Positions 1,835 to 63,694 of a stretch of DNA of 64,000 bases are shown one piece after another. The first letter of the stretch is position 1; the number at the start of each line of letters is the position of its first letter. The stretch is from positions 31,653-95,652 of the forward strand of contig JAFZNG010000005.1 of assembly GCA_017551025.1 (NCBI GenBank), read 5' to 3'. The position numbers and the translations under genes are program-made. Below the pieces are notes generated by a model, which made no database searches, was not told the DNA's origin, and worked only from the letters and a program-made list of their open reading frames with translations. This stretch comes from Paludibacteraceae bacterium. GTDB lineage: Bacteria; Bacteroidota; Bacteroidia; Bacteroidales; Paludibacteraceae.

Positions 1835-4347
1835 TCGACACCAAAGCGGCCACGTTATCGAGCCGAGTGCGATGAGTAACAGGAGTATGGCGCATGCCAT
1901 GCTCCATTTGTCTATTGTCAATGCGCCCGGCACAAATTCCATGCGGATGGTATGTTCGCCTGCCGGAATAACAGCTGCTCGGAGAATATAGTCGGCACGG
2001 CCGATAGAAGCCTCCTGGTCATCGATATACAAGTGCCATCCTTCCGGGAAGTATACCTCGGAGAAGACAGCGACACGATTGCTGGCGCAGTTAGAAGTGT
2101 ATTGAAGTTTATTGGGTTTATACTCGGTCAATTCAATCCGATCGGTACTATCCGGCTTAGTGTCGCACGTTAGCACTTCGCGGAAACGCTCATCAGCCAC
2201 AGCCGTCTTATGCAGGTCAACCGTGTTGAGTGCTGCACTTTCATCATCCGGCGTAGGCACAAATTGCACATTGTCTACAAACCATGCATTGCCCATAGCG
2301 TACGGGTTCTTGACAGGCATTGCTTCGCCGCTCTGGGTAGATACTATTGCATAGCGCATATTCAGCATATTCAGCACAGGGAAGTCGGCTCCCTGTTTCT
2401 CGTCCGGCATCGTAAAGCCGTTGGTGCGGAAGATGGTCTGGTAGAGCGGATTCATCTCCGGTACGATATGCGCCTCGATGAGATCTTGATAGCGACGCAG
2501 TTTGGCCGCATGATAACCTCCGATCGAGTGGAGACGATAGCTGGTACGCGAGTCGTTGAAGGTGCTGGTCGTGAGATTGAGTACACGATAGTCAAGCGTC
2601 GTATCTTGTAGAATCTCCTCTTCGTATGGCTGGATAGCGAAGTAGTTGTCGCTTTCGCGAGCGGAGACGAAGGCGTTGTCGCCGAAGAAACGCTTGTCAA
2701 CGGGAAGCATGTCTAACAGTATTAATGCTGCCAAACCAGCATATAATACTGTATTTGTGATTTGTGATTTGTGATTTGATTTTTCCAGGCGAACCAATAG
2801 GTAAGGACGAAGCCGAGAGCGACGAAGAGCAGCGAGCGCCAAGCATCGGCTTTGACCATGGCTACACGTTCGTCCATGATGGCGCGGCGCAACCAGTCGG
2901 GCACCTTGGTGGTCCATTGCTCGTCGTAGGTGCTGGTCATGTCGAAGCCACCGGCAAAGAGGGCTGCATACAGACACAGCGCCATCGTGATACCGCTGGC
3001 AATGAGCAGACTGATACGCAATTTCTTCCATTCTACTTCACCGGATGCGATACGCTGCAGGCCCATGAAGGCGAGAAGTGGCATGGTGATTTCCGCTACA
3101 ACGAGGATGGACTCCACGGCGCGGAACTTATTGTACATCGGGAAGTAGTTGAAGAACAGTTCGGTGAGCCACATGAAGTTCTTACCCCACGCCAGCAGGA
3201 TAGACATAATCGTGGCAAAAAGTAGCGCCCATTTATACGGTCCGGGCACAATTAGCAGTGCTAAGATAAACAAGAAGCAGACGATAGCTCCTACATATAC
3301 CGGTCCGCTGGTAAAGGCTTTCTCGCCATGATACGTAGGTACTTGCTTGCAGAACTGCTCCGCATCGCGCTTGGCGACGCCCTGCTTGCGCATGGCGCGG
3401 CAGAGTTGCGAGTCCTTGCCTACATTATAACCGCTGGCACCGCCTTCCCAGTTCGGGATGAGCAGCGTCATCGTCTCGGCCTTGCCATAACTCCAATCGG
3501 TAGCATATTTGAGATCGAGACCGACTTGAGAGGTCGAAGTTGTATCATTGGCGGTCAGTTCGGAGTGCCCGCCACGCATAGTCTCCTTGAGGTAGGAGTT
3601 ATTCATATCCCACCAGCTGTACTTCGTCGCGAATAGCAGAACCCCGCAGACAACGAGAATGCCAATCCCGATTCCTAAATCCTTGAAGCGTTTCTCGCGG
3701 ATATGAATATACAGTTCGGCACAAGCCATGACGCCTATAAGCATAGCCATGTAATAGGTCATTTGGGGATGCAACGTAATGCCGATAAAGCCATATACGA
3801 GCATTAGAGGTACGCCAAGCCAATATCGGCGGCGCATGATCGCATAGAATCCGCCGATGACGGGACCGAGCATGCTGAGCGCAGCCGCTTTGGTCATATG
3901 ACCGGCGGGAATGATGAGGAAGAAATAGCTACTCAGTCCAATCGCCAGTGCTCCTACTAGGCTCAACCACGGGCTGATGCCAAAACATAGCAGCATCAGG
4001 AAAAATCCGCAGAAATAGGCAAAGATCAGTCCAATGGCTGCGGTGCCTTCGGAGAATCCCAGACGGGTGAAGTTTTCCAGCGTACTGCGCATCTCGCCCG
4101 AAGGAAGAGAACCGGTAATTTGGAAGGTAGGCATACCACTGAACTGTGAGTTCGTCCACCATGTTGTCTCGCCCGTCTGTTGGTGGTAGGTCCTGGCTTC
4201 ATTGGCTGAGCCGAGCCAGTTGCTGACGTCTCCAGCCGCGAGCACTTTGCCGTGGAGCATCGGACTGCAATAGAGCAGCGCTATACCAATAAAGACCACA
4301 AAAGCCACTAAGAAGGGCAGAATCTTTTTCCAATCAAATGATTTCAT
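1811..4347 (-). pseudogene. YfhO-family membrane protein, frame-broken at a heptamer repeat
   Basis: Two overlapping frames together make one YfhO-type protein. The first (4347 down to 2722) encodes 541 residues: one N-terminal helix, a large extracytoplasmic loop (AGDVSNW, WWTNSQFSGMPTFQ) and about ten more membrane spans. The second continues from about 2780 down to 1811 with the last helices, a periplasmic domain (FPEGWHLYIDDQEA) and a final membrane span. They are joined at three copies of GTGATTT (2757-2777). The first frame runs through the repeat, reads QYYMLVWQH and stops. The second reads ITNTVLYAGLAALILLDML, the sensible continuation. One extra 7 bp unit would join them into about 847 codons, a normal length. 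YfhO proteins are GT-C-like glycosyltransferase candidates; the substrate here is unknown. The gene is either phase-off, decayed, or mis-assembled at the repeat. Confidence 0.85.
2757..2777. repeat. Heptamer array GTGATTT x3 inside yfhO
   Basis: Three perfect copies of GTGATTT, flanked by degenerate copies (GTATTT before, GATTTTT after). Read on the coding strand this gives N-H-K-S-Q-I-T-type residues. This is the point where the yfhO frame is lost; a change of one unit shifts the frame by one. Confidence 0.95.
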
Positions 4348-4372
4348 ATCTGTGTTTTCGTTTTTTGCAGGA

Positions 4373-4696
4373 TTATATATACGATCTGATGTCCACCAGT
4401 TCCTGGCGGATGCGCTGGAGAATATCGGTGGCGCGGATGCGGACGTCTACCTGACGGCCGTCGTTGCGCAGTTCGCGTCGGATAGCTTCGATACGGGTAA
4501 TCTTCAGTTCGTCGCGTATATAGCGGACACGCTTGAGAAACTCGATATCCTCGGTAGTATAGTAGCGGTTACCGTGACCGTCTTTGCGTGGATTGAGTTG
4601 TTCGAATTGTTCTTCCCAATACCGCAAAGTAGGATAGGGGAGACCGGTTATCTCGGCCGCCTCCTTGATAGAATAATATATCTTAGATTCACTCAT
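4373..4696 (-). CDS. MerR-family transcriptional regulator
   Basis: The product has 107 residues. Positions 8-28 (KEAAEITGLPYPTLRYWEEQ) are the winged helix-turn-helix of MerR proteins, followed by the wing (NRYYTTEDIEFLKRVRYI) and a short dimerising helix. There is no metal- or drug-sensing C-terminal domain, so it belongs to the small single-domain MerR proteins common in Bacteroidota. It probably binds DNA as a dimer; nothing in the sequence identifies its target or signal. Its start overlaps the end of the lytic transglycosylase by 4 bp (ATGA), so the two are translationally coupled. It lies 25 bp upstream of yfhO. Confidence 0.88.
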   Translation of the reverse strand: MSESKIYYSIKEAAEITGLPYPTLRYWEEQFEQLNPRKDGHGNRYYTTEDIEFLKRVRYIRDELKITRIEAIRRELRNDGRQVDVRIRATDILQRIRQELVDIRSYI

Positions 4697-5595
4697 TGTT
4701 GTGCAACGGTTTCTTCCTTTGTCTCGTCTGCCTCGGCTGCTTCAGCGGCATGCTTGCGCATGAAGCGTGCCTTGCCTTGCGGCAGACAGATAATATTGTC
4801 GCGACCGGCGGGAGTGACGCCCTGTAAGTACTGCGGATTCATCATGCGGATGGTCTCTACGGGCGTACCGGTAGTGCGGGCTATCTGCTGGAAGTTGAGG
4901 CGACGGGTGGTATGGATCGTATCTGCCGCCGCAGGCAGGTTATCGATCGTGGCGGGCTGGATATTATAGGCGTCAGCATATTCCAGCACGTAGTTGTAGG
5001 CAATGAAGATAGGCATGTAGATGCGCGTCTGCTTGGGCAGGTAGGGATAGATCGCCCAGAACGACTTCTTGCCTCCCGCGGCCTTGATAGCACCGCGTAT
5101 AGTACCCGAACCGCAGTTATACGCAGCGATAACGATGGCCCAGTCTCCGTACATGCCGTACAACCGCTTAAGCAGTTTGGCTGCGGCTTCGGTAGCGCGA
5201 TAGGTGTCGAGTCGGTCATCGACATATGCGTTGCGCTGCAGTCCGAAGGCCTTACCCGATTCGGGCATGAATTGCCACAGTCCGGCAGCGCCGCGTGGCG
5301 AGACGACCTGCGGGTTGAGCTTCGACTCCACGAGCGTCAGGTACTTCAGCTCGGTCGGCAGTCCGTTGTCGCGGAAGATCTGCTCGATGATCGGGAAATA
5401 GTATAGCGACAATCCCCGCACACGACTCACCATACCCGGTGCCTTCAGGTAACGATCTACGTAGGTTTGTACCTCCTGATTGTACTGCATCGGTACGGTC
5501 CGCTGCATTTGCTTGATGCGTTGCTTGACGGTCTCGTTGGGCGAAACCGACAGACTGAGCATCAGGGCGACGAGTATGAATGCGAGTCGTTTCAT
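4693..5595 (-). CDS. Lytic murein transglycosylase, SLT/MltD-like, with a C-terminal LysM-like segment
   Basis: The protein has 300 residues with a signal peptide at about 1-18. The SLT domain spans about 70-215: LVESKLNPQVVSPRGAAGLW holds the catalytic glutamate (E90) and the G-A-A-G-L-W-Q-F-M-P signature, and AAYNCGSGTI is the second conserved motif. Residues about 235-275 (FQQIARTTGTPVETIRMMNP) look like one LysM peptidoglycan-binding repeat. The C-terminal tail is rich in Ala and Glu. The enzyme cleaves glycan strands between MurNAc and GlcNAc in the periplasm, forming anhydro-muropeptides. The gene overlaps DUF5683 upstream and merR downstream by 4 bp each, which indicates tight translational coupling. 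Confidence 0.92.
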   Translation of the reverse strand: MKRLAFILVALMLSLSVSPNETVKQRIKQMQRTVPMQYNQEVQTYVDRYLKAPGMVSRVRGLSLYYFPIIEQIFRDNGLPTELKYLTLVESKLNPQVVSPRGAAGLWQFMPESGKAFGLQRNAYVDDRLDTYRATEAAAKLLKRLYGMYGDWAIVIAAYNCGSGTIRGAIKAAGGKKSFWAIYPYLPKQTRIYMPIFIAYNYVLEYADAYNIQPATIDNLPAAADTIHTTRRLNFQQIARTTGTPVETIRMMNPQYLQGVTPAGRDNIICLPQGKARFMRKHAAEAAEADETKEETVAQQ

Positions 5596-9847: not shown

Positions 9848-9879
9848 CGTAATGACGTAATGACGTAATGACGTAATGA
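9848..9879. repeat. Octamer array CGTAATGA x4 upstream of the DUF4861 gene
   Basis: Four perfect tandem copies of CGTAATGA, then a partial copy CGACG. It fills most of the 47 bp between kduD and the DUF4861 start and sits where the ribosome would bind, so copy number would change leader length. Confidence 0.95.
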
Positions 9880-9888
9880 CGACGTTTT

Positions 9889-10692: not shown

Positions 10693-10706
10693 GATAAGCT
10701 GTAAAT

Positions 10707-10750
10707 CTTTAGTTATTCTTTAGTTATTCTTTGGTTATTCTTTAGTAATT
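10707..10750. repeat. 11-mer array CTTTAGTTATT x4 between kduI and kduD
   Basis: Units CTTTAGTTATT, CTTTAGTTATT, CTTTGGTTATT, CTTTAGTAATT. The array fills nearly the whole 64 bp between the end of kduI and the start of kduD. Confidence 0.92.
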
Positions 10751-10756
10751 CACCTT

Positions 10757-11608: not shown

Positions 11609-12328
11609 TTAATTTTTAATTTTTACTTTTGGATTCTTAACTTGCTTATTCAGCGGCCACAACCATCCGAGATTGATGCTTACGTCCAGCGGGTTGGCCC
11701 GCGAGAAGTAGTCCCCGGGCTGCGTACCGTAGATACTGCCGAGGCTGTAATTAGCGCGCAGTTCCAACTGGTAGAGGCCGGCTTTTTGTGTCCGCACATA
11801 GAAACCGAGTCCGGCAGCCAGTCCCCAGTCGAAGCGGCTGTTGAGCGACTGGTACTGCTTCGACGCTGCAGCGGAAAGCGGTGTGCCGCTGTAGGTATCT
11901 GCTATGCAGAAACCGATTTGCGGACCCAGGTTGAGGAATCCGCGCACGCTACGTTGCTGCGGAAAATAGAGGTGCATGAGGAAAGGCAGTTCCAGGTAAT
12001 GGAGGTGGCGCTCGTAAGTGCCCGTCGAGGCGTCATGTTCACGCCAACCTCGGTGCATGTAATTGAGCTCGACCTGCAGTCCGCACACCTTATGTCCGGC
12101 ATAGCGGAAGACCAGTCCGCCGTCACCGCCCAGCAGGACGCCGTTGGTGAACGGGTTGTTCATGTAGGATACCGTCGGACTGTAGAGCACCGTAGAGGCT
12201 TGTACACCGCCTTGCACACCGATATACATCTCCGGTGCACGCAGCATAGGCTGCGCCATAGAAGGAACTATGATTGCTCCGCTCAGCGAGCAAAGAACCA
12301 GAATAAGTATGTACTTTTTCAAATTCAT
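11609..12328 (-). CDS. Outer-membrane beta-barrel protein (PorT/OmpW-like size class)
   Basis: The protein has 239 residues with a signal peptide (to about residue 25). Alternating polar and hydrophobic strands such as FRYAGHKVCGLQVELNYMHR, FLNLGPQIGFCIAD and YQLELRANYSLGSIY fit an eight-stranded barrel of the OMP_b-brl_2 type common in Bacteroidota. Partners and cargo are unknown. It is translationally coupled (4 bp overlap) to the upstream LysM/binding-protein gene. Its C terminus (KQVKNPKVKIKN) is encoded by a degenerate heptamer array and ends in Lys/Asn rather than the aromatic residue expected of a barrel C terminus, so the array may have extended the gene. Confidence 0.75.
   Translation of the reverse strand: MNLKKYILILVLCSLSGAIIVPSMAQPMLRAPEMYIGVQGGVQASTVLYSPTVSYMNNPFTNGVLLGGDGGLVFRYAGHKVCGLQVELNYMHRGWREHDASTGTYERHLHYLELPFLMHLYFPQQRSVRGFLNLGPQIGFCIADTYSGTPLSAAASKQYQSLNSRFDWGLAAGLGFYVRTQKAGLYQLELRANYSLGSIYGTQPGDYFSRANPLDVSINLGWLWPLNKQVKNPKVKIKN
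11612..11642. repeat. Degenerate heptamer array (TTAATTT-like) at the barrel gene's 3' end
   Basis: Units read about TTAATTT, TTAATTT, TTACTTT, TGGATTC, TTAACTT. They encode the last residues of the barrel protein. The later units are weak. Confidence 0.6.
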
Positions 12329-13608: not shown

Positions 13609-15233
13609 TTATGGGTATATTTACGTTTTCGGCTCAGCATGACCGTGAGTCCCACCAGTGCCAGCAGGGCTATCGGCACAATGGTGCTGACGGCCTGGAT
13701 GGCGGACAGTTGGGCATATGAGCGTTTCTGGTTGAGCAGGTGGAGATCCACTTTCTTCTGGCGCAAGGCTATCAGTCCCTCGTCATCGGCCAGGTAAAGC
13801 ACGGCATTCGTGAGGAAGTCACGGTTGCCGAACTGCATGCCGGAGTAGCGGTCATAGCCGACGGGCAGGGCTTGTCCCTGTTCCAGGTCGTTGCGAATGA
13901 TACTACCCGAGGCTACAATGATCTGACGCGTGTCGAGACTCTGCTCGCGCTGCGACTGTTGGGTGCGAATGCTATCCGGTCGCATACGGTGGGCAAATAT
14001 CGACGGGAACTCGCCCTGCAATGCCACAGCTACCGGGATATACTGGTAGCGGAAGGTGCTCATGTCGGGATTCATGTCGCCCAGATCAACTTCGGCAGGC
14101 GTCGGAATAACGCGGCTGGCAGTGGAAGTAGCGAGCAGTATCTCCTTGCGGATACCGTCCTCGCCGCCTACGGCCTCAATAGGCGAGGCAAAAGAACAAG
14201 AGACTTGCGTCACGTTCTTGGTGACGGGCGACTCCTGCGAGGTCAATAATAGCGGTGCGTAGTACCACGGCATCGGTTGCAGGTTGGTCTGCTGCGGGTC
14301 TTGGGATACGTTGACCGGTATAGGCAGGCACTGTACGTCTTGCAGCAGTGCCGGCTGGATACGTACGCCATAACGGAAGAGCATATCCGAGAGGTTGAGA
14401 TCGAGCGGCAAGACGGGCGTAAAGCCGTTCTTGCTGAGCACTTCATCGGAGAAGACAACGCCATTGAGCACCCACAGGATACGTCCACCCTGCATCAGGT
14501 ATTGGTCCAGACAATATTTGTCTTCCTCCGAGAAACGTGTCTGCGGGTCGGCGATGATGAGTACACGGTAGGCATTGAGCGCCTCGGGCTGGTTGCCGAT
14601 ACGTCCGCGGTCGACCTGAAAATGGCGGCTCAGTTGCTGCGTAATATCCGCTACACGCTGTTCCGACAACTCCTGATGACCTTCGATGAAGGCGATCTTC
14701 GGTGTCTCGGTGCGCATCAGTTCGCTGATGGCTTCTACAAGCGTATATTCCAGATTCTCGATGCTGACATTCAGGTTTTCCTCACCCGACAATTGCCGAT
14801 TGTTGTTAAGCAGCGGCACAACGGTAAAGCGTCCATTGTAGGATACTTTGGCATAGGGATAGACCGGTGTCTGAGCCGTCTTGCCGTTGCGTTGGCGTTC
14901 GTGGACAATCGTTGGTTGCATACCGTCGGGCAACTTATCGTGCTCGCTATCGAAGGTATGGCTTTTAATAGCGGCATATACGCGGAACTCGTCGAGCGTC
15001 TCTTCGGTAGCGTTGCGCAACTTGCGGAAACCGGCATTCAGATCGCCGTCCAAATAGACCGTCACCTCCACGGGCTCCTCCAGCGAACCGAGCAACTGCT
15101 TGGTCTGCCGTCCGAGTGTGTAATGGCGGTCGTCGGTCATGTCTACGCGTACTACAAATACGCGTGCCATCACCGTGGCGACTACCATCAGTACCACTAC
15201 AACCGCCCATATGTACTTTTCAGCTTTCAGCAT
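13605..15233 (-). CDS. gldG: GldG-like ABC transporter auxiliary protein
   Basis: The protein has 542 residues. An N-terminal helix (WAVVVVLMVVATVMARVFVV) is followed by RVDMTDDRHYTLGRQTKQLL and the long ABC_transp_aux periplasmic domain (VEVTVYLDGDLNAGF, KIAFIEGHQELSEQ), and a C-terminal membrane span (about 515-535) ends in KRKYTHK. This is the layout of GldG, which works with the permease GldF and ATPase GldA in gliding Bacteroidota and has homologues in non-gliding ones. Neither gldF nor gldA is adjacent: the gene before it is a prolyl isomerase. Its start codon lies inside a heptamer array. Confidence 0.85.
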   Translation of the reverse strand: MLKAEKYIWAVVVVLMVVATVMARVFVVRVDMTDDRHYTLGRQTKQLLGSLEEPVEVTVYLDGDLNAGFRKLRNATEETLDEFRVYAAIKSHTFDSEHDKLPDGMQPTIVHERQRNGKTAQTPVYPYAKVSYNGRFTVVPLLNNNRQLSGEENLNVSIENLEYTLVEAISELMRTETPKIAFIEGHQELSEQRVADITQQLSRHFQVDRGRIGNQPEALNAYRVLIIADPQTRFSEEDKYCLDQYLMQGGRILWVLNGVVFSDEVLSKNGFTPVLPLDLNLSDMLFRYGVRIQPALLQDVQCLPIPVNVSQDPQQTNLQPMPWYYAPLLLTSQESPVTKNVTQVSCSFASPIEAVGGEDGIRKEILLATSTASRVIPTPAEVDLGDMNPDMSTFRYQYIPVAVALQGEFPSIFAHRMRPDSIRTQQSQREQSLDTRQIIVASGSIIRNDLEQGQALPVGYDRYSGMQFGNRDFLTNAVLYLADDEGLIALRQKKVDLHLLNQKRSYAQLSAIQAVSTIVPIALLALVGLTVMLSRKRKYTHK

Positions 15234-15246
15234 TCAGCTTTTAGCT
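15219..15246. repeat. Heptamer array TTCAGCT x4 over the gldG start codon
   Basis: Units TTCAGCT, TTCAGCA, TTCAGCT, TTTAGCT. On the coding strand they encode the beginning of GldG (M-L-K-A-E-K), and the array reaches the stop of the upstream prolyl isomerase. The start codon is inside the array. Confidence 0.88.
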
Positions 15247-16988
15247 TATTTCTTTATTTCGTTGAATACCGCTTGGTCTACAACTACTTCGTATTTCTCG
15301 CGCAACTGCTTGATCCATAGTTGCTCCAGGTAGTCCTGATAGTCGGTGGTCACGCGACCGCGTTCATCGGAATAATGCTGCGGTGCCTTGAGCGTACGAC
15401 CTACGCAGAAGACGTAAGGCCACTCTTCGGTCTCGGGCTGCGGCGCTTTCTTATCCTTGAAGCCAAGACGGTCTACTACCTTGTTCTGGCCTTTTGCCCA
15501 AAGACCGTGGTTGTACTTCACGAAGGTCTGACCGTCGATATTGATACGCTGGTTGACATAACTCTCGATAGAGTCAGGGTTGGAGCGGATGATCGACTTC
15601 ATGGCGCGCATCGTATTCTTGTCTTTGCAGTATACGACATAACCTTTGTAGCGACTTTCGGTCCACTGGTAGCGGTCGCGGTGCGCCTGGAAATATTCTT
15701 CCAAACCGGCGGTGTCCTTAGCAGCCTTATCCCATACCTCGCGCAGCGATACTTCGAACAGCAGGATGCCGTCATGGTACTCGCGAACGAGGTTGGCGAA
15801 CTCGGGATATTTCTCCTCCAGGTGGCTGTCGGCGTAGGCTTTTACGTCCTCATCGCTCATGTCAGCAGGCAGGTTGTACTCGGCACGGGTGCGACGTACA
15901 AAGGCCTTGTCGGTCTCCTGCATACGCTCATCACGCTGTACATTACGAGCCACCATGGTACGGATGCTATCGAGCGGTTGGATAGGACGGCGATCGTAGA
16001 GCTTGATGATGTGCCATCCGTAATCGCTGGTAAAAGGTGCACTCAGCTGACCGGGCTGCATCGAGAAGGCGGTTTGCTCAAACTGCGGTACCATCATGCC
16101 GTGGCCGAACCAACCAAGGTCACCTCCGCGTGCGGCCGAACCGCGATCATCGGATAGACGACGGGCTATTTCTTCGAATTCACCGCCGCGGAGCAACTCA
16201 CCGTAAATAGAGTCGATCTGTACTTTCATGACAGCCTTAATCGAGTCGTTGCCACGCGGCACCATCTTCATGACATGCGCGGCATGGACTTCCTCGTGGG
16301 GGCGTTCCTCTTCTACGAGAGCTATGTGCAGACCGTAGGCGGTGCGGAAGATAGGCGTGATGTCACCCACGTTGGTGGTATAGACAGCCTCCTCAAAACT
16401 GAAGACATACCGGAAAGGTGTGATCCAGCCGAGTTCACCGCCATTGTCCTGGACGCTGGGGTCGGTAGAGAGCTGACGAGCCAAGTCCTCGAAGAGTTTG
16501 GCACGTTTCTGCCCCTTGACTTTAAGCAATTGCTTGCGGGCTTTTTCGAGTTGCGTACGTGCAGCACGTTCTGCCGAATCGGAAGCCGTTGCCGGGCACT
16601 GGATAGCGATATGCGAAGCGCGGCGGTCGCGACTCATGCGGCTGTAGCTGAGCTCGATCATGCTGTCGAGCGCCTGCTCGTCCTGCAGGTACTTCGGCGT
16701 AGCCTGTGCACGATAGCCGGCCAGTTCCTTCAGGAAGGCGGCGGTGGTGTCGATGCCTTGCGCTTTCGCCTCGGCCACTTTAAGTTTGAAATTAATGAAT
16801 AGATCCAGGTACTCGTCCATGGTCTTTTGGTCCAAGGTGGTCTCCTGGTTGTTCTTCTGATAGATGTAAAGGAACTCGGATGCCATAATGGGTTCGCCAT
16901 TGATGGTCATTAGTACTTTGTCCTCCTGTGCCATGGCTACGGTAGTCATACCGATCAGCACGGCAATACTCAAGAAAAATCGTTTCAT
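15246..16988 (-). CDS. Periplasmic peptidyl-prolyl isomerase, SurA/PpiD-like
   Basis: The product has 580 residues. A signal peptide ends at TVAMAQ (about 21). A SurA-like helical N-terminal region follows, then two parvulin (rotamase) domains at about 125-235 (RRASHIAIQ; DNGGELGWITPFRYVFSFEE) and 237-345 (AAHVMKMVPRG; GGDLGWFGHGMMVPQFEQ). A C-terminal helical region runs to the end. It catalyses cis-trans isomerisation and acts as a chaperone for outer-membrane proteins in the periplasm. It is the first gene of the long minus-strand run and has its own promoter at 17038-17069, which faces the DHH gene's promoter. Confidence 0.92.
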   Translation of the reverse strand: MKRFFLSIAVLIGMTTVAMAQEDKVLMTINGEPIMASEFLYIYQKNNQETTLDQKTMDEYLDLFINFKLKVAEAKAQGIDTTAAFLKELAGYRAQATPKYLQDEQALDSMIELSYSRMSRDRRASHIAIQCPATASDSAERAARTQLEKARKQLLKVKGQKRAKLFEDLARQLSTDPSVQDNGGELGWITPFRYVFSFEEAVYTTNVGDITPIFRTAYGLHIALVEEERPHEEVHAAHVMKMVPRGNDSIKAVMKVQIDSIYGELLRGGEFEEIARRLSDDRGSAARGGDLGWFGHGMMVPQFEQTAFSMQPGQLSAPFTSDYGWHIIKLYDRRPIQPLDSIRTMVARNVQRDERMQETDKAFVRRTRAEYNLPADMSDEDVKAYADSHLEEKYPEFANLVREYHDGILLFEVSLREVWDKAAKDTAGLEEYFQAHRDRYQWTESRYKGYVVYCKDKNTMRAMKSIIRSNPDSIESYVNQRINIDGQTFVKYNHGLWAKGQNKVVDRLGFKDKKAPQPETEEWPYVFCVGRTLKAPQHYSDERGRVTTDYQDYLEQLWIKQLREKYEVVVDQAVFNEIKK

Positions 16989-18926: not shown

Positions 18927-18947
18927 GGCTCATGGCTAATGGCTCGA
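18927..18947. repeat. Heptamer array GGCTNNN x3 over the lolC/E-like start codon
   Basis: Units GGCTCAT, GGCTAAT, GGCTCGA. The ATG of the next gene (18939) falls in the array, and its first codons (M-A-R) come from it. Confidence 0.7.
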
Positions 18948-20162
18948 TTGGAACTGCATATAGCCTGGCGGTACCTCTTTTCCAAAAAAGGACATAACGC
19001 TATTAATATTATCTCCGGTGTCAGTGCCGGGGCTGTTGCTGTCGTTGCCGCTGCGATGATATGCGTACTGTCGGTCATGAACGGCTTTGGTAGTGTCATA
19101 GAGCAGATGTTTTCTCAATTCGATCCGCAACTGCAGGTCGTAGCCCATGAAGGCAAGACGTTTCGCACCGATGCCGAACCGATCCGACAGTTGCGTCAGC
19201 ATGAGACGGTGGCGTATGTGTCAGAGGTCGTGGAGAATACGGCTATGCTGCGCTACGGCGACAAGCAAACACCCGCCCGGCTTATGGGGGTGGATTCGCT
19301 CTTTGCTCGTGCTACACATATCGATTCTATCCTCACTGAGGGCGCGTTTTGCGTTCGGGACGAGGGCGGTTTCGAGCGATGCGTGCTCGGTCGCGGACTT
19401 GCGCAGACCTTAGGGGTGGGGGCGCATTTTGTAGAACCGCTTTATATCTATGCGCCTAAGCGCACAGGACGTATCAACCTGATGCGACCCGATAAGAGTT
19501 TAAGGCGCGAGCATGCTTTCATGGCCGGTACGTTTGCTGTCAACCAGATTCAGTATGACGATCACGTGATGCTTGTCTCGCTTCCGCTCGTTCGCCGACT
19601 CTATGAGTATGACAGTCTGACGGTTACGTCGCTCAACCTAAGTCTCGTGCCCGAAGTCTCTGTGCCCGCGGCCCAGCGCCAAATCCAGAAGCTGTTGGGG
19701 GATCGATATGTTGTGCGTAACCGCTATGAACAGCAGGAAGACTTCTTCCGTATGTTCGGCGTGGAAAAACTACTCACCGCTCTGCTGCTGGTGTTTATCC
19801 TGCTGGTAGCCAGCTTTAATATCATCTCGTCGCTCACTATGCTCATGCTCGACAAGCGTGAGGATATTCGTATATTGAACAACCTGGGTGCTACGCCCAC
19901 GCAGATACGTCGTACCTTCCTGCTTGAGGGCTGGCTGATTAGTATTCTGGGCGTTATTCTGGGTGTGATCCTCGGTGTAACCGTCTGTCTGCTCCAGCAA
20001 CATTACGGCTTTCTTAAGCTCGGTTCGGGTAACGACTATGTGCTGACTGCCTATCCTGTTTTGCTCCAATGGACGGATGTGCTGTTTGTTATTGCTGTGG
20101 TGCTGTTGCTCGGATTCCTGGCTGCTTGGTATCCGGTGAGGAAGTTAAGAGTTAATAGTTGA
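18939..20162 (+). CDS. FtsX-like ABC permease, LolC/LolE type
   Basis: The protein has 407 residues. MARLELHIAWRYLFSKKGHNAINIISGVSAGAVAVVAAAM combines the cytoplasmic start and first membrane helix typical of LolC/E. A large periplasmic domain (about 50-270) follows, then three C-terminal helices of the FtsX domain (LTALLLVFILLVASFNIISS, a second around 320-350, a last at about 375-395). LolC/E proteins lift lipoproteins from the inner membrane with ATPase LolD. No lolD is adjacent. The stop codon and last residues (KLRVNS) are encoded by a heptamer array. Confidence 0.88.
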   Translation: MARLELHIAWRYLFSKKGHNAINIISGVSAGAVAVVAAAMICVLSVMNGFGSVIEQMFSQFDPQLQVVAHEGKTFRTDAEPIRQLRQHETVAYVSEVVENTAMLRYGDKQTPARLMGVDSLFARATHIDSILTEGAFCVRDEGGFERCVLGRGLAQTLGVGAHFVEPLYIYAPKRTGRINLMRPDKSLRREHAFMAGTFAVNQIQYDDHVMLVSLPLVRRLYEYDSLTVTSLNLSLVPEVSVPAAQRQIQKLLGDRYVVRNRYEQQEDFFRMFGVEKLLTALLLVFILLVASFNIISSLTMLMLDKREDIRILNNLGATPTQIRRTFLLEGWLISILGVILGVILGVTVCLLQQHYGFLKLGSGNDYVLTAYPVLLQWTDVLFVIAVVLLLGFLAAWYPVRKLRVNS

Positions 20163-20178
20163 AAGTTAAAAGTTAAAA
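20144..20178. repeat. Heptamer array GTTAANA x5 at the lolC/E-like stop codon
   Basis: Units GTTAAGA, GTTAATA, GTTGAAA, GTTAAAA, GTTAAAA. The gene's last codons and its TGA (20160-20162) lie in the array. Confidence 0.9.
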
Positions 20179-20189
20179 GAAGTCGTCTA

Positions 20190-20723
20190 GTGGAAAGTAA
20201 GAAGTCTATAGTAACTATCGTAGTTTTGGCTGTTATGTTAATGATGACGGCTTGCCATCCGAATAGTCCGACGCCGCGACCTGTGGTGACAAAGGAATAC
20301 CGGGAGGCATATCTTACTCGGCATGGACATTGTTACGATTCCATCGAGGCTTCAGTGCTCTCACTCGATCTCTATTCCGAGGTCCTGACACTCGACTCCG
20401 TGCATCGTATGCAGGGTACGGGATATAATCTCTATGTGTCTGATATCTTTGTGGAGGATTCTTTGCTTACTGTCGGAACCTATACGGCGGATTCGGTCGC
20501 TCAGCGCTTTACCTTTCTGCCGGGACGCGACTTTGAAGGTATGCCTACTGGCGCATACCTGCTCTATGTGAACGACGGTAAATTGGAGAGTATTCAACTC
20601 GTGGACTCCGGCTATTTTGTAGTGCGCGATACACTCGATGGAATCGTGGATATCTCGCTGCACCTCTATTATGGTAGTACTACCTACGAAGCCCATTACC
20701 AAGGACCTCTAATGCTAAACTAA
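20190..20723 (+). CDS. Predicted lipoprotein of unknown function (DUF4738-like)
   Basis: The product has 177 residues and starts at GTG 20190, since no ATG lies before the signal sequence. The lipobox MMTAC places Cys at about 21. The rest is Asp/Thr/Tyr-rich with regular beta-strand spacing, for example SLLTVGTYTADSVAQRFTF and GAYLLYVNDGKLESIQL. It resembles small Bacteroidota lipoproteins with a single beta-sandwich (DUF4738 type), but that link is tentative. It ends 1 bp before xerD, so the two are transcribed together. No function can be assigned. Confidence 0.65.
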   Translation: MESKKSIVTIVVLAVMLMMTACHPNSPTPRPVVTKEYREAYLTRHGHCYDSIEASVLSLDLYSEVLTLDSVHRMQGTGYNLYVSDIFVEDSLLTVGTYTADSVAQRFTFLPGRDFEGMPTGAYLLYVNDGKLESIQLVDSGYFVVRDTLDGIVDISLHLYYGSTTYEAHYQGPLMLN

Positions 20724-29763: not shown

Positions 29764-29791
29764 GAATTAAAAATTAAAAATTAAAAATTCA
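29764..29791. repeat. Heptamer array AAATTAA x4 upstream of sufB
   Basis: Units GAATTAA, AAATTAA, AAATTAA, AAATTCA, starting 3 bp from the sufB start codon, in the ribosome-loading region. Confidence 0.9.
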
Positions 29792-29807
29792 AAATGTTTC
29801 AAAAATT

Positions 29808-57838: not shown

Positions 57839-58330
57839 ATGAAGCGATATATCTTGCTCGCCGAGGAAGGCGAACGTAGTTTAATATCCGAAGTGGAGCA
57901 GTCGTTAGGCTGCTCTCTTCAGGATTGGCAGGTACTCATCACCGGCGTGGGGGCTATTAATGTGATTCGTACGCTCGCTCCGCTTGACCGCGATGCGGAG
58001 TTGCTCAATATCGGCTATGCCGGTAGTGCGAACTTTGAGATAGGTTCGCTCATCGAGGTGACGGAGGTGCGTCTCAACCATCCGAACGTTACCTATCCGG
58101 AACCTGCATTGCCCCTTACACCATACACCATACACCATACACCATTGCCGCAGGCCATCTGTTACTCGAACTGCGACTTCGTGCTCCAGTCCGACTATCG
58201 CGACTGCGTCTTCGATATGGAGTTGGCGTTCATCGCCTCGCTGGGCTTCAAGCGCCTGAGCAGTATCAAGCACGTGAGCGACAATCTCTCGCTGCACGCA
58301 TATCATGAATTAACCAACGGCGTCGAATGA
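57839..58330 (+). CDS. Nucleoside phosphorylase/nucleosidase-superfamily protein, short
   Basis: The product has 163 residues against about 200-230 for typical MTA/SAH nucleosidases. VLITGVGAINVIRTLAPLDR and LLNIGYAGSANFEIGSLIEV are the central sheet and phosphate/base loop of this superfamily; DMELAFIASLGFKRLSSIKH and HVSDNLSLHAYHEL match the region of the substrate-binding Glu and Asp of these enzymes. The middle (PLTPYTIHHTPLP) is encoded by a heptamer array and has no family counterpart. Likely a purine nucleoside or futalosine-type hydrolase; the substrate is undecided. It overlaps rlmI by 4 bp. Confidence 0.7.
   Translation: MKRYILLAEEGERSLISEVEQSLGCSLQDWQVLITGVGAINVIRTLAPLDRDAELLNIGYAGSANFEIGSLIEVTEVRLNHPNVTYPEPALPLTPYTIHHTPLPQAICYSNCDFVLQSDYRDCVFDMELAFIASLGFKRLSSIKHVSDNLSLHAYHELTNGVE
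58118..58145. repeat. Heptamer array ACACCAT x4 inside the nucleosidase-like gene
   Basis: Four perfect copies of ACACCAT, in frame at this copy number, encoding Y-T-I-H-H-T-P. Confidence 0.95.
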
Positions 58331-59553
58331 CAACGGTAGTACTAAAGCCAAAGAAGGAAGAATCGCTGCTTCGTCAGCACCCCTGGGTGTTCTCGGGGGC
58401 GATTGCTCGTGTGGCCTTGGATAAGGATTATCCTTATGATGCGCCGCGCGAGGGCGAGCTTGTTCAGGTGCGTGCCGCTTCGGGCGACGTACTGGGCGTC
58501 GGCCATTGGCAGGTAGGGAGTATTGCGGTGCGTATCCTGGCTTTTGGCGTGGATGCGTTGCCCAAGGATTTTTGGCGTGAGCGCATTGCGGCGGCGTATC
58601 TGGTTCGTCGAATGCTGCAATTAGTGCGCGAGGATAACGATACGTATCGCTTGGTGCATGGCGAAGGCGACTTCTTGCCGGGGCTGATCGTAGATGTGTA
58701 TGCTGATACGGCGGTTGTTCAGGCGCATTCGATAGGTATGCATTATGCCCGTCACGAGATAGCTGAGGCGATCCTTAATACCGTGCCGGCTGTGCGTAAT
58801 ATATACTATAAGTCCGACGATACTTTGCCCTTCAAGGCTCAGATTGACGGCGACCGCATAGGCTGGCTAATCACCAATCACCAATCACCAATCACCAATT
58901 CTGATGAGTTCTGGTCAACCGAGAATGGTCTGCAGTTCCGTATCGACTGGCTGCGTGGTCAGAAGACAGGTTTCTTTATCGACCAGCGCGAGAACCGCGC
59001 CCTCGTGGAGCGCTACGCGAAGGGAAAGGATGTGCTGAATATGTTCTGCTATACCGGAGGCTTCTCGCTGTATGCGCTGCGGGGTGGGGCACGTAGGGTG
59101 GACTCGGTGGACGTAAGTCAGAAGGCCATCGACCTGGTCAACGTGAATGTGGCTCGCAACTTCCCCGATTGTACGTGCCATAAGGCGGTGGCGGCGGATG
59201 CGTTTGAGTATCTGGATGCCCAACGTGCGGAGAACCATACCTACGACCTGATTATCCTGGATCCTCCGGCCTTTGCCAAGCATCGCGATGCGATCAAGAA
59301 TGCCTTGCGTGGCTACCAGCGCATCAATGCCAAGGCCATCCGGCAGATCCGTCCGGGAGGTATACTGTTTACGTTCTCGTGTTCCCAGGCGGTGGATAAG
59401 GAGGCGTTCCGGCTGGCGGTGTTTAGTGCGGCGGCGCAGGTAGGACGACGTGTGCGTATCCTGCACCAGCTCCATCAGCCGCAGGACCATCCCATCAATA
59501 TCTATCACCCCGAAGGAGAGTATCTGAAGGGCTTGGTGCTGTACGTGGAGTAG
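58327..59553 (+). CDS. rlmI: Class I rRNA methyltransferase RlmI-like
   Basis: The protein has 408 residues. An N-terminal PUA domain (RQHPWVFSGAIARV, EGELVQVRAASGDVLGVGHW) is followed by the methyltransferase fold: DQRENRALVERYAKGKDVLN, MFCYTGGFSLYALRGGARRV (SAM motif I) and LIILDPPAFAKHRDAIKNAL (catalytic loop), as in RlmI, which makes m5C1962 of 23S rRNA in E. coli. Residues about 180-192 (LITNHQSPITNSDE) are encoded by a heptamer array and lie in the linker before the catalytic domain. It follows the nucleosidase-like gene with a 4 bp overlap. Confidence 0.9.
   Translation: MTTVVLKPKKEESLLRQHPWVFSGAIARVALDKDYPYDAPREGELVQVRAASGDVLGVGHWQVGSIAVRILAFGVDALPKDFWRERIAAAYLVRRMLQLVREDNDTYRLVHGEGDFLPGLIVDVYADTAVVQAHSIGMHYARHEIAEAILNTVPAVRNIYYKSDDTLPFKAQIDGDRIGWLITNHQSPITNSDEFWSTENGLQFRIDWLRGQKTGFFIDQRENRALVERYAKGKDVLNMFCYTGGFSLYALRGGARRVDSVDVSQKAIDLVNVNVARNFPDCTCHKAVAADAFEYLDAQRAENHTYDLIILDPPAFAKHRDAIKNALRGYQRINAKAIRQIRPGGILFTFSCSQAVDKEAFRLAVFSAAAQVGRRVRILHQLHQPQDHPINIYHPEGEYLKGLVLYVE
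58869..58896. repeat. Heptamer array AATCACC x4 inside rlmI
   Basis: Four perfect copies of AATCACC followed by AATTCTG, in frame. The encoded I-T-N-H-Q-S-P resembles I-T-N-H-K-S-Q in yfhO. Confidence 0.95.
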
Positions 59554-60148: not shown

Positions 60149-60179
60149 CACGCTTTTTCGCGCCTTGTGCGCTGAAAAC

Positions 60180-60215
60180 TATCTAGAGCATCTAGCATAT
60201 CTAGAGTATCTAGAA
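60180..60215. repeat. Nonamer array TATCTAGAG x4 in the rpsF leader
   Basis: Units TATCTAGAG, CATCTAGCA, TATCTAGAG, TATCTAGAA. Confidence 0.88.
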
Positions 60216-60216
60216 A

Positions 60217-60251
60217 ATAATTTATAATTTATAATTTTTAATTTTTAATTT
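60217..60251. repeat. Heptamer array ATAATTT/TTAATTT x5 in the rpsF leader
   Basis: Three ATAATTT and two TTAATTT units, ending 12 bp before the rpsF ATG. It follows the nonamer array directly. Confidence 0.9.
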
Positions 60252-60263
60252 ACTTAAAAAAGT

Positions 60264-60608: not shown

Positions 60609-60610
60609 TT

Positions 60611-60877: not shown

Positions 60878-60910
60878 TTAACCCGTTAAAATTAGAGAAA
60901 GGAAAGAACA

Positions 60911-61354: not shown

Positions 61355-61358
61355 TTCG

Positions 61359-61386
61359 TAATTTTTAATTTTTAATTTTTAATTGT
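61359..61386. repeat. Heptamer array TAATTTT x4 upstream of rpmE2
   Basis: Units TAATTTT x3 and TAATTGT, ending one base before the rpmE2 ATG, on the ribosome-loading region. Confidence 0.92.
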
Positions 61387-61387
61387 T

Positions 61388-61642
61388 ATGAAGCAAGGAA
61401 TTCATCCCGATAACTACCGCGTAGTAGTTTTCAAAGATATGTCTGACGGTACTCAGTTCTTCAGCCGCTCTACCGCTGCTACTAAGGACAGCATCACCAT
61501 TGACGGTGTAGAGTATCCGCTCATCAAGCTCGAGATCTCCAACACTTCGCACCCGTTCTATACCGGTAAGTCGAAGCTGGTGGATACCGCCGGTCGCGTG
61601 GACAAGTTCATGTCGCGCTATGGCAATCGCAACCGCAAGTAA
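61388..61642 (+). CDS. rpmE2: Large ribosomal subunit protein bL31, type B
   Basis: 84 residues. MKQGIHPDNYRVVVFKDMSD, FFSRSTAATKDSITIDGVEY and SNTSHPFYTGKSKLVDTAGR are typical of type B bL31. It has no cysteine, so it is the zinc-free form. A type A copy, if present, is outside the window. Confidence 0.95.
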   Translation: MKQGIHPDNYRVVVFKDMSDGTQFFSRSTAATKDSITIDGVEYPLIKLEISNTSHPFYTGKSKLVDTAGRVDKFMSRYGNRNRK

Positions 61643-61655
61643 TCCTTGCGACGGT

Positions 61656-61690
61656 AAGGGGCGGGCAAGCATGTCTGCCCCTTATTATTT
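61656..61690 (+). terminator. Intrinsic terminator after rpmE2
   Basis: Stem AAGGGGC / GCCCCTT with a 14 nt loop (an alternative GGGCA / TGCCC pairing is possible), then ATTATTT. Confidence 0.7.
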
Positions 61691-61742
61691 AATCAGATTA
61701 ATCCGAATAATCTGAATAATCTGAATAATCAGAAAAATCAAC
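61689..61742. repeat. Nonamer array ATAATCTGA-like x6 upstream of the pnuC-like gene
   Basis: Units TTAATCAGA, TTAATCCGA, ATAATCTGA, ATAATCTGA, ATAATCAGA, AAAATCAAC. It ends 4 bp before the ATG and resembles the large array at 63587-63694. Confidence 0.9.
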
Positions 61743-61746
61743 TATC

Positions 61747-62511: not shown

Positions 62512-62521
62512 AGTGGTGAAC

Positions 62522-62553
62522 GTTAAATTGTTAAATTGTTAAATGGTTAAAAA
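62522..62553. repeat. Octamer array GTTAAATT x4 over the rluA start codon
   Basis: Units GTTAAATT, GTTAAATT, GTTAAATG, GTTAAAAA. The ATG (62543) of the next gene is formed inside the third unit. Confidence 0.92.
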
Positions 62554-63484
62554 GCAAGATACAAGTTTTCGCGTAGAGCAGCAGATCTCCTTGATGGACT
62601 TTCTGCTCGGGAAGATGGGTGGCATGAGTCGCACGTCCGTCAAGCAACTGCTCAGCCTGCGTCGCGTATCGGTGGCGGGGGCGATACAGACCCGTGGCGA
62701 CTATACCTTGTTGCCCGGCGACCGTGTATCGGTCTCGTCCGGACGGGGTAATACGGCGCTCAACCATCCTAAGCTGTCGGTATTGTATGAAGACGAACAC
62801 TTGATCGTTGTATATAAGCGTCCCGGACTGTTGACTGTGCCTACGCGGCCGGAGTCGTCGGAGACGACGGTGCAGTCGATCCTGCGTGCTTATGTGCGTC
62901 GTCAGCATCCGCGCAACTCGGTCTATGTCGTCCATCGTCTGGATCGTGAGACGAGTGGCGTGCTGGTCTTTGCCCGTACGCCGGAGCTGCAGGAGTATAT
63001 GCGGACGTATTGGCGTCAACTAGTGACCGAGCGCACGTATATCGCTGTCGCTGAGGGCATTTTCGACCAGCCGGAGGGAACGATTACCAGTTGGTTGACC
63101 GAAGACCGTCGCACCACACGCGTCTATTCCTCACCCACCGACAACGGTGGCCAGAAAGCCATCACGCATTATAAGGTGTTGAAGACCTCCAACTCTAAAC
63201 TAGACGACTCTCCAACTTCTCTCAACTCTCAACTCTCAACTCTCAACTATTCATTAGTGGAATTGCATCTCGAAACCGGCCGCACCAACCAGATCCGTGT
63301 TCATCTGCAGTCGATCGGCCATCCGGTAGTAGGTGATCGTAAGTATGGTCATGGCTTGGACGAGAGTCCGATTGACCGTCTCTGTCTGCATGCGAAGGTG
63401 CTGGCATTTATCCATCCGGTGACGGAGAAGAAGGTGCGTTTCGAAGCCCCCGTGCCGAAGGAGTTCAATCGCGTATTATTATAA
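62543..63484 (+). CDS. RluA-family 23S rRNA pseudouridine synthase
   Basis: The protein has 313 residues. An S4-like domain (about 13-70) is followed by the catalytic domain: VLYEDEHLIVVYKRPGLLTV, VVHRLDRETSGVLVFARTPE with the catalytic Asp in H-R-L-D-R, and GRTNQIRVHLQSIGHPVVGD. It converts uridine to pseudouridine in 23S rRNA or tRNA (RluA/C/D group, site unknown). Residues around 217-232 (NSKLDDSPTSLNSQLSTLNY) are encoded by an in-frame heptamer array inside the catalytic domain, probably in a loop. The start codon is in an octamer array. Confidence 0.88.
   Translation: MVKKQDTSFRVEQQISLMDFLLGKMGGMSRTSVKQLLSLRRVSVAGAIQTRGDYTLLPGDRVSVSSGRGNTALNHPKLSVLYEDEHLIVVYKRPGLLTVPTRPESSETTVQSILRAYVRRQHPRNSVYVVHRLDRETSGVLVFARTPELQEYMRTYWRQLVTERTYIAVAEGIFDQPEGTITSWLTEDRRTTRVYSSPTDNGGQKAITHYKVLKTSNSKLDDSPTSLNSQLSTLNYSLVELHLETGRTNQIRVHLQSIGHPVVGDRKYGHGLDESPIDRLCLHAKVLAFIHPVTEKKVRFEAPVPKEFNRVLL
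63221..63248. repeat. Heptamer array CTCAACT x4 inside the RluA-family gene
   Basis: Four perfect copies of CTCAACT, with degenerate copies upstream (63188-63220). It is in frame and encodes L-N-S-Q-L-S-T. Confidence 0.95.
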
Positions 63485-63516
63485 TAAAATTATAATACTT
63501 AGTTGTCAAAAATGAG

Positions 63517-63544
63517 AAAACCGCAAGTTTTTTGCGGTTTTTCT
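63517..63544 (+). terminator. Intrinsic terminator after the RluA-family gene
   Basis: A perfect 10 bp stem AAAACCGCAA / TTGCGGTTTT with a 5 nt loop, then TTCTTG. It touches the next promoter's -33 box. Confidence 0.92.
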
Positions 63545-63574
63545 TGTGTATGTCAAAAAAAAGCAGTAATTTTG
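63543..63574 (+). promoter_or_regulatory. Promoter for the right-edge gene
   Basis: -33 CTTG (63543-63546), 20 bp spacer (TGTATGTCAAAAAAAAGCAG), -7 TAATTTTG (63567-63574). The leader to ATG 63722 is about 140 nt and is mostly a nonamer array. Confidence 0.85.
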
Positions 63575-63586
63575 CGGGCTTTTAGG

Positions 63587-63694
63587 AGAATTCTGAATAA
63601 TCGGAGTACTCAGAAGACTCAGAGTAATCGGAGTAATCAGAGTAATCAGAGTATTCAGAATAATCGGAGTAATCAGAATAATCGGAATAATCAG
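63587..63694. repeat. Nonamer array AGTAATCAG-like x12 in the leader of the right-edge gene
   Basis: Twelve consecutive 9 bp units such as AGTAATCGG, AGTAATCAG, AATAATCGG, AGTATTCAG. It is the longest array in the window. No spacers of constant length separate the units, so it is not a CRISPR array. Confidence 0.95.

What the first reader, a model, noticed from the sequence alone, without database searches (positions are those of the whole stretch)
2757..63694. A dispersed family of short tandem arrays (7-11 bp units) at gene boundaries and inside genes
Seen: about 20 arrays in 64 kb, at 2757, 7115, 9848, 10707, 11612, 15219, 18927, 20144, 29469, 29764, 58118, 58869, 60180, 60217, 61359, 61689, 62522, 63221 and 63587, plus a weaker one at 27136. 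Unit length is mostly 7 bp, also 8, 9 and 11, with usually 3-5 copies. Each array has its own unit sequence, so they did not spread by copying one element. Known: heptameric short tandemly repeated repetitive (STRR) sequences occur in heterocystous cyanobacteria, and short repeats drive phase variation elsewhere. Inference: this genome has a mechanism (slippage or a copying enzyme) that makes such arrays from local sequence. The regular unit length and the bias to gene edges are hard to explain by chance.
Basis: partly seen in the sequence, partly recalled or inferred. Interest (0 to 1): 0.85.

Follow-up and report, generated by a model that had tools for sequence, protein, structure and literature searches.

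The report
Heptamer repeat cassettes scattered through genes
The genome of this probable gut bacterium is peppered with short DNA cassettes built from 7-letter repeats, which sit right behind stop codons and even inside core enzymes without breaking them; at least one family has plainly been copied from place to place, and how that happens is unknown.

Summary
In detail: all 20 listed arrays are there. In 772 kb (40% of the genome) perfect runs of 14+ bases repeat at lag 7 in 56 places, at lags 1-6 in none; shuffles give none. The genome is a Paludibacteraceae-like MAG.

118 arrays use 36 unit types (null about 110); AATTAAA alone makes 41. The window's AGTTGAG tract (63195-63250) belongs to a ~50-bp cassette with 28 further matches in the genome; 17 of 22 parsed tracts have exactly four heptamers before an AGA break. 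Cassettes sit at stop codons in operons (26 of 48 co-directional gaps of 25-45 bp are heptamer-periodic) and in frame in housekeeping enzymes (17 of 54 insertions relative to related genomes). At several orthologous junctions relatives have no array or another unit. The preferred period differs by species (7 here, 11 in congener G011).

Best reading: a genus-wide lexicon of tiny, mostly non-folding, heptamer-periodic interspersed repeats, copied between loci and then homogenised in place. Copying is shown for one family, likely for a second, inferred for the rest. The copier is unknown. A new variant of known heptamer/small dispersed repeats.

The parts
2753..2778 (-). ATTTGTG x3.7 (coding strand CAAATCA), in frame, its middle 44 nt before the stop of ORF 2722-4347(-)
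   Evidence: similar tracts at four other places in the genome
7109..7156 (-). 48-bp heptamer tract (GTCGAAA/GTAGAAA/GACAAAA) filling the parA-parB gap
   Evidence: L076, L078, L079 have a 3-bp gap here; L077 has a different heptamer tract in a 27-bp gap
9848..9881 (-). octamer array CGTCATTA x4.2 between 8924-9841(-) and 9889-10692(-)
   Evidence: similar octamer arrays at L020:2695 and L024:11049
10706..10751 (-). 11-mer array TCTTTAGTTAT x4.2 in an intercistronic gap
11609..11630 (-). AATTAAA-type array at the 3' end of ORF 11609-12328(-), just upstream of the 5-dehydro-4-deoxy-D-glucuronate isomerase gene
15218..15247 (-). GCTGAAA array spanning the peptidylprolyl isomerase / gldG junction
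   Evidence: L076, L077, L078, L079 and L088 have arrays of other heptamers here; L080 and L081 have TAA directly followed by ATG
18927..18945 (+). weak GGCTCAT array just before ORF 18939-20162(+)
   Evidence: 11/14
20142..20190 (+). AGTTRAA cassette ending in the shared break AGAAGTCGTCTAGT, over the stop of ORF 18939-20162(+)
27132..27163 (+). degenerate CGTCATGA octamer array inside the RNB-domain gene 26703-28043(+)
   Evidence: 11/14
29475..29501 (-). CAGCCAA array in frame in the sufB loop (aa ~87-95)
   Evidence: loop of variable length and content in the 25 aligned relatives (L133 partial); L110 carries a similar insert
29765..29795 (-). AATTAAA-class array just upstream of sufB 28319-29761(-)
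58117..58145 (+). TACACCA x4.1 inside ORF 57839-58330(+)
   Evidence: unit recurs genome-wide (42 overlapping pattern matches in G000)
58869..58899 (+). AATCACC x4.4 in frame in a loop of the SAM methyltransferase gene 58327-59553(+)
   Evidence: the loop is short in most relatives; L055 carries an AAAGTTG-type tract there
60180..60252 (+). 9-mer tract TATCTAGAG followed by ATAATTT/AATTTTT heptamers, between a Bacteroidota-type promoter and ORF 60264-60608(+)
   Evidence: promoter type from a recalled consensus
61359..61388 (+). AATTTTT array with TTCG edge in the gap after rplI (60911-61354)
   Evidence: relatives have other heptamers or non-array spacers
61690..61740 (+). 9-mer TAATCAGAA tract; folds (z -3.75), a separate class
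62522..62551 (+). octamer GTTAAATT array between 61747-62511(+) and 62543-63484(+)
63195..63250 (-). AGTTGAG cassette: four heptamers, then AGAAGTTGGAGAGTCGTCTAGTTT, in frame (antisense) in the pseudouridine synthase gene 62543-63484(+)
   Evidence: 28 further matches in the genome; 15-aa net insertion relative to L139
63598..63698 (+). 9-mer TAATCAGAG/TAATCGGAG tract in a probable 5' UTR; strong hairpin (z -6.97), a separate class

Best explanation
Most of the arrays are copies of short (about 20-60 bp), heptamer-periodic, mostly non-folding interspersed repeat cassettes drawn from a lexicon shared across the genus. Shown: restricted vocabulary; shared composite structure and near-fixed copy number in the AGTTGAG family; shared variant units in the AATTAAA family; empty orthologous sites at some junctions; in-frame presence in housekeeping genes. 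Inferred: a cassette is copied as a block to a new locus, for example by template switching during repair or by an unidentified enzyme acting in trans. Copies survive where they do least harm, right behind stop codons in operons and in variable protein loops. After arrival the units within a cassette drift by single substitutions that become homogenised along the array, which gives each locus its own look while the 7-bp period is inherited. A regulatory function is not needed to explain the data.
For: Vocabulary: 36 classes in 118 arrays, top class 41, 949 same-class pairs; drawing a random 7-mer from +-300 bp (1000 draws) gives on average 111 classes, top at most 4, pairs at most 18; intergenic 7-mers (500 draws) give top at most 6, pairs at most 30. 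AGTTGAG cassette: 29 matches in the genome at E<=0.004, itself included; flanks look unrelated; of 22 parsed tracts 17 have four heptamers, 4 three, 1 five, and 19 go on with AGAAG. The 29 matches come to 24 distinct classified copies, 13 between genes and 11 in frame in genes, 5 sense and 6 antisense (see full report). AATTAAA family: 12 of 41 right flanks begin cgaat, 8 caaa, 6 gaatta. ACACCAT arrays in 17 of 101 genomes (own included), mirrored control in 0. Empty sites at parA-parB, ppi-gldG and others; where G000 has an array the median gap is 33 bp, in relatives 9 bp. 17 of 54 insertions >=4 aa relative to related genomes are heptamer-periodic, control 1.6; of the other lags 4-14 only the multiple 14 is raised. 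Unit network: 27 of 36 classes linked by single substitutions, null means 14-15. In long gaps, arrays whose near edge is 0-25 bp past a stop (5 in 2.7 kb, plus 5 overlapping it) are denser than further on (9 in 48 kb).
Against: Only two families show shared structure beyond the unit. A k-mer test of array flanks found 14 shared 11-mers, fewer than control intergenic DNA (22, 39 and 56 in three draws, which share promoter motifs), so for most families copying rests on the vocabulary alone. No reverse transcriptase was found in G000 (0 PF00078 matches) and only one weak Y1-transposase match; other transposases were not searched, so the copier is unidentified. No target-site duplication was seen by eye. 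That several unrelated units share period 7, and that G011 prefers 11, could instead mean a generator with a fixed step. Within-locus homogeneity needs slippage or gene conversion as well.
Confidence: 0.6

Rival explanations
1. In-situ replication slippage: a local heptamer is duplicated again and again because 7 bp is a favoured slip length, with purifying selection removing harmful arrays. This is the published guess for heptamers (Mrazek 2007, seen only as cited in PMC4692102 and PMC4679880).
For: Sharp single period with no arrays of period 1-6 at the strict threshold in G000; homogeneous units within a locus; different units at orthologous junctions.
Against: The vocabulary is far too small. 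Four-copy structure plus a shared break at unrelated loci. +7 steps would pass through frameshifts in core genes; of the 19 in-gene insertions listed only one (21 nt) is a multiple of 7, though loops were partly replaced, so lengths are approximate. The preferred period differs between congeners.
Confidence: 0.2
2. Selected function at operon junctions: unstructured spacers that help start translation, or heptamers that put stop codons in all frames, as discussed for TAACTGA repeats upstream of starts in Beggiatoaceae.
For: 26 of 48 co-directional gaps of 25-45 bp are heptamer-periodic. Most heptamer tracts fold no better than shuffles. 48 of 58 stop-proximal units contain a stop codon in sense.
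Against: The antisense units contain stops almost as often (43 of 58). Both orientations occur. Arrays also lie beside stops in gaps of 120 bp or more and inside genes. Several relatives do without them at the same junction.
Confidence: 0.12
3. Contingency loci: hypervariable copy number switches genes on and off, as for 7-bp repeats of hmw genes in Haemophilus influenzae (papers seen only in the listing).
For: Position near starts; 7-bp units are not multiples of 3.
Against: Copy numbers are low and near constant in the AGTTGAG family. Many host genes are housekeeping (DXS, IleRS, AroC, UvrA and others by my recognition of the translations; SufB by Pfam). No copy-number data within a species.
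Confidence: 0.03
4. Assembly artefact of a metagenome bin.
For: 3 of 34 sampled contig starts have an array (lag 7, 8, 9 or 11) in the first 100 bp.
Against: The arrays are short (mostly under 40 bp), keep long reading frames open, and occur in many separately assembled congeners.
Confidence: 0.02

Closest known systems
TAACTGA direct repeats of marine Beggiatoaceae, some cyanobacteria and five Bacteroidetes (MacGregor 2015, PMC4679880; abstract and sections 3, 8, 10, 15, 24 read)
   Same: Heptamers in short arrays, mostly intergenic near starts and stops, some at gene ends; species-specific histories. One host named there, Paludibacter propionicigenes, is recalled as a member of the same family as this genome's relatives.
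   Different: There one unit dominates and similar units are rarely repeated (section 8); here 36 units form a network, with composite cassettes and many in-frame insertions in housekeeping genes.
Heptameric SSRs / STRR of cyanobacteria and GGGAATC repeats of Xanthomonas (PMC4692102, passages read; STRR otherwise recalled)
   Same: Period 7, intergenic, same gene neighbours with different length and sequence in related species.
   Different: Those are G-rich quadruplex formers with one consensus; these units are diverse and mostly not G-rich.
Small dispersed repeats of cyanobacteria (Elhai 2008; paper not held, recalled; one sentence and the reference seen in PMC2884548)
   Same: Tiny (tens of bp) non-coding repeats that may be mobile with no known enzyme.
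   Different: Sequence families differ; heptamer periodicity of the element itself is, as far as recalled, not their defining feature.
Rickettsia palindromic elements (PMC2229807, abstract and section 9 read)
   Same: Found in frame in conserved protein genes as well as between genes.
   Different: RPEs are 105-146 bp and palindromic; these are shorter and most do not fold.
REP/REPIN elements with RAYT transposase (PMC3116915, passages read)
   Same: Many short copies per genome.
   Different: No palindrome in the heptamer tracts; only one weak Y1 match in the genome.

Membership tests
Heptameric short tandem repeats (long SSRs, period 7) | Tandem arrays of 7-bp units in excess of chance | tested here: met
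   56 vs 0.0 shuffled
TAACTGA repeats | Unit is TAACTGA | tested here: not met
   Its class is not among the 36 period-7 classes of the sample
TAACTGA repeats | Concentrated just upstream of start codons in forward orientation | tested here: inconclusive
   Stops are the stronger anchor: 32 of 59 intergenic arrays within 10 bp of a stop, 20 of 59 within 10 bp of a start; both orientations
Small dispersed / interspersed repeats | Same non-trivial sequence at many unrelated loci | tested here: met
   AGTTGAG cassette, 29 matches; shown for this family and partly for AATTAAA only; other families share no flanking core
Small dispersed / interspersed repeats | Present/absent difference at orthologous sites | tested here: met
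   parA-parB and gldG junctions, between species; within a species not testable
MITE / REPIN / RPE | Palindrome or terminal inverted repeats | tested here: not met
   Of 16 tracts folded, 11 are plain heptamer tracts: 9 have z from -0.3 to +1.4, L030 -2.2 (hairpin in the flank) and L042 -2.9 (weak, -1.3 kcal/mol). Only the two 9-mer TAATC tracts fold strongly
MITE / REPIN / RPE | Transposase in the genome acting on them | tested here: inconclusive
   One Y1_Tnp match, E 1.5e-9; other transposase families not searched
Retro-elements | Reverse transcriptase in the genome | tested here: not met
   0 PF00078 matches in a 95% complete genome
Phase-variable contingency repeats | Copy number varies within a strain or species | not testable with these tools
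   one genome per species held; no reads

The most novel reading that the evidence does not exclude
The genus has a dedicated, period-setting mechanism that writes short repeat cassettes into genomes. The step is a species trait (7 bp here, 11 bp in congener G011), the words come from an inherited lexicon, and the product is inserted preferentially behind stop codons and, in frame, into core enzymes, so that a new kind of selfish or repair-born micro-element is reshaping both operon spacing and protein loops.
Probability: 0.22. Interest if true: 0.87.

Novelty: new variant of a known kind. Interest (0 to 1): 0.64.

Why it matters
That heptamers are the commonest class among long bacterial repeats has been on record since 2007 with only a guess (polymerase slippage) to explain it. 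Here is a species-rich, well-sampled genus in which the preferred period changes between species, empty and filled orthologous sites can be compared, and cassettes sit inside core genes in frame. That makes birth, copying and homogenisation of tiny repeats directly testable. It also warns that loops such as KLKIKN or STLNSQL in predicted proteins of these genomes are repeat insertions, not domains.

Tried and rejected
Independent origin of each array from local seeds: rejected as the main process by the vocabulary tests. Reverse-transcriptase copying: no PF00078 in the genome. RAYT/REP-type mobility: heptamer tracts mostly do not fold, one weak Y1 match. Conserved non-array cores for all families: not found; array flanks share fewer 11-mers than control intergenic DNA. 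Hot-spot sharing between species: not significant. One search gave 14 of 57 against 17 of 151 (p 0.03), but that set held a locus of the window's own genome and duplicates; without them it is 12 of 53 related junctions where G000 has an array against 15 of 137 where it has none (>=60% identity, p 0.06, pairs not independent). Orientation at stops: G-richer strand in sense in 20 of 28 (p 0.036), weak. AATTAAA and AGTTGAG have no usable mirrored control because their mirror is a rotation of themselves. Gene models are my own codon-usage caller: starts are approximate, it misses some genes, which inflates 'long gaps', and the first version was replaced. For G011 the caller placed most arrays outside genes; the longest open frame over any 11-mer array is 549 nt. 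Structure prediction of two array-bearing proteins was planned and did not run. Within-species variation could not be tested.
Full report
What the window is. It is C34:31653-95652 of a 1.94-Mb, 36-contig genome (G000), 95% complete. GldG, a BT3233-family protein and a SusC-like hit point to Bacteroidota. The best GldG relatives in named genomes are Paludibacteraceae and other Bacteroidales MAGs, most from ruminants and horses. The genus search drew 101 genomes, the own one included, from a larger group.

Check of the observation. Every listed place holds an array. In 41 stretches, 772,452 bases, perfect runs of 14 or more at lag p number 0 for p=1-6, 56 for p=7, and 4, 10, 2 and 1 for p=8-11; five local dinucleotide shuffles give none. 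The window and one stretch (L035) were not chosen at random; without them 40 remain at lag 7 in 688 kb. The excess is centred on period 7, with lesser ones at 9 and 8.

Units are not unique. At a run threshold of 11, 118 non-overlapping period-7 arrays fall into 36 classes: AAAAATT (read AATTAAA) 41, ACACCAT 11, ACACCCT 7, AACTCTC 6, AATCACC 5, ACCGCTC 5 and so on. Replacing each unit by a random 7-mer within 300 bp gives on average 111 classes and never more than 4 of one in 1000 draws; intergenic 7-mers never more than 6 in 500. The classes form a network: 40 one-substitution links and a largest component of 27 of 36, against means of 22-24 links and 14-15 under two nulls (p at most 0.004).

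A dispersed cassette. The tract at 63195-63250 has 28 other matches in the genome. Their flanks look unrelated and the plan recurs: AGTTGAG four times, AGA, a variable AGTNNNNN, then AGTTGAG again. Of 22 parsed tracts 17 have four heptamers, 4 three, 1 five; 19 go on with AGAAG and 3 with AGAT. Of the 29 matches, two (L231, L246) did not fit the search expression, two (L247, L249) repeated another locus, and L230 and L251 are two matches within one tract. That leaves 24 distinct copies: 13 between genes and 11 inside called genes, 5 in sense and 6 in antisense, one of the sense copies (L241) at the very end of its gene (whose own tally of 14 intergenic counts L251 apart). The 13-base core AAGTCGTCTAGTT occurs 22 times over 13 of 101 genomes, against 8 for the mirrored control. 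AATTAAA arrays share variant units: of 41, 12 continue cgaat, 8 caaa, 6 gaatta. For the other families no shared flank was found; array flanks share fewer 11-mers (14) than control intergenic DNA (22-56).

Where they sit. 59 arrays lie between called genes, 51 in coding sequence, 8 at stretch ends. 47 of 118 lie within 10 bp of a stop, random 3.3. Of 48 co-directional gaps of 25-45 bp, 26 are heptamer-periodic; without the window and L035 it is 22 of 40, against 0.2 in coding segments of equal length. In 131 gaps of 120 bp or more, ten arrays start between 20 bp before and 25 bp after a stop and nine further on; numbers are small and long gaps may hide missed genes.

Inside enzymes. Translations of array-bearing genes are intact and recognisable (my reading) as DXS, GltX, AroC, IleRS, UvrA, TatD, RluD and others. 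Of 496 genes searched, 127 have a match in a related genome at >=55% identity over >70% of the length, own-genome loci left out (130 with them). At 54 sites G000 has an extra >=4 aa; 17 of these are heptamer-periodic, against 1.6 expected from random segments of the same genes; lag 9 gives 1 against 0.65, lag 14 follows 7, other lags 0. The related genomes are congeners and some other Paludibacteraceae. The same loops vary in length and content across the genus, for example in SufB and the pseudouridine synthase and the methyltransferase.

Turnover between species. At the ppi-gldG junction W, L076, L077, L078, L079 and L088 each have a different heptamer; L080 and L081 have none; L084 and L104 score at lag 8. 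At parA-parB L076, L078 and L079 have a 3-bp gap and L077 another heptamer. Where G000 has an array the median gap is 33 bp, in relatives 9 bp; sharing of array sites between species is not significant. AATTAAA arrays occur in 22 of 101 genomes of the genus, G000 having the most, 44 overlapping matches against 14 in the next, and in 6 of 296 of the phylum sample, own included in both. ACACCAT arrays occur in 17 of 101, mirrored control 0. AGTTGAG arrays (one mismatch allowed) occur in 47 of 101; its mirror is a rotation of itself and so no control.

Period as a species trait. In 85-100 kb samples at runs >=12, G006, G007 and G016 have 5, 6 and 6 at lag 7 (G016 also 4 at 11), G014 and G017 3 each at 7, G011 7 at lag 11 and one at 4, G002 2 at 8 and 3 at 11, and G026 of another family none at 7-11. 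In 497 kb of G011, runs >=11 number 40 at lag 11, 6 at 8, 4 at 7 and 4 at 10, with recurrent units such as AATCACCCACT; no frame over an 11-mer array exceeds 549 nt. So the phenomenon in G011 may be of a different kind.

Mechanism. Copying of blocks is shown for one family and likely for a second; for the rest it is inferred from the vocabulary. Homogenisation in place is inferred from uniform units within a locus. The copier is unknown: no reverse transcriptase, one weak Y1 match, and little folding of the heptamer tracts. Template switching between arrays during repair is my preferred guess.

Literature. Heptamers as the commonest long repeats, and polymerase slippage as a guess, come from Mrazek 2007, seen only as cited. 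A survey by the same group finds repeats of 1-3 bp units suppressed and those of 4-11 bp normal or weakly over-represented (PMC4060949, passages). TAACTGA repeats. The searches that showed no report of such cassettes in Bacteroidales were made, listings only, over an open-access library.

Change on checking. The hot-spot count was redone without own-genome loci and duplicates and lost significance, and the AGTTGAG copies were recounted as 24.

Noticed in passing
window 61690-61740 and 63598-63698; L015:365, L018:10681, L044:18182: A separate 9-mer family (TAATCNGAA/G). The two window tracts fold into hairpins far better than shuffles (z -3.75 and -6.97); the second follows a Bacteroidota-type promoter (recalled consensus) and precedes an ATG, so it looks like a 5' UTR hairpin.
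   Followed up: partly
L204-L223 and L179-L183 (congener G011): Arrays of period 11 with recurrent units (AATCACCCACT, AACTGGGTGAT, AAATAATAACC, AAAGTATCCCT), mostly outside called genes; the root GGTGATT recalls the heptamer AATCACC of the window's genome.
   Followed up: partly
L253:5398-5424: An IMG/VR contig (37.5 kb) carries an AGTTGAG cassette just upstream of an ATG; whether it is a prophage or host DNA was not checked. Two other IMG/VR contigs (L254, L255) match the AATTAAA/AATTACG pattern.
   Followed up: no
L012:278-326, L030:216-263, L043:399-423: The same 9-mers AAAAGTGAG (all three loci) and AAAATTCTC (L012, L030), probably part of a longer dispersed repeat.
   Followed up: no
L018:11-77 and L027:1-41: Two contigs begin in or beside ACACCAT/ACACCCT arrays, one with 9.6 copies, so longer arrays may be lost at assembly breaks.
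   Followed up: no
window 30154-40125 and 40473-47954: Two giant open reading frames of 3323 and 2493 aa, not examined.
   Followed up: no
L049 and L048, methyltransferase loop: At the loop that holds the AATCACC array here, two congeners carry GC-rich inserts that look palindromic, so the loop accepts several kinds of insert.
   Followed up: no
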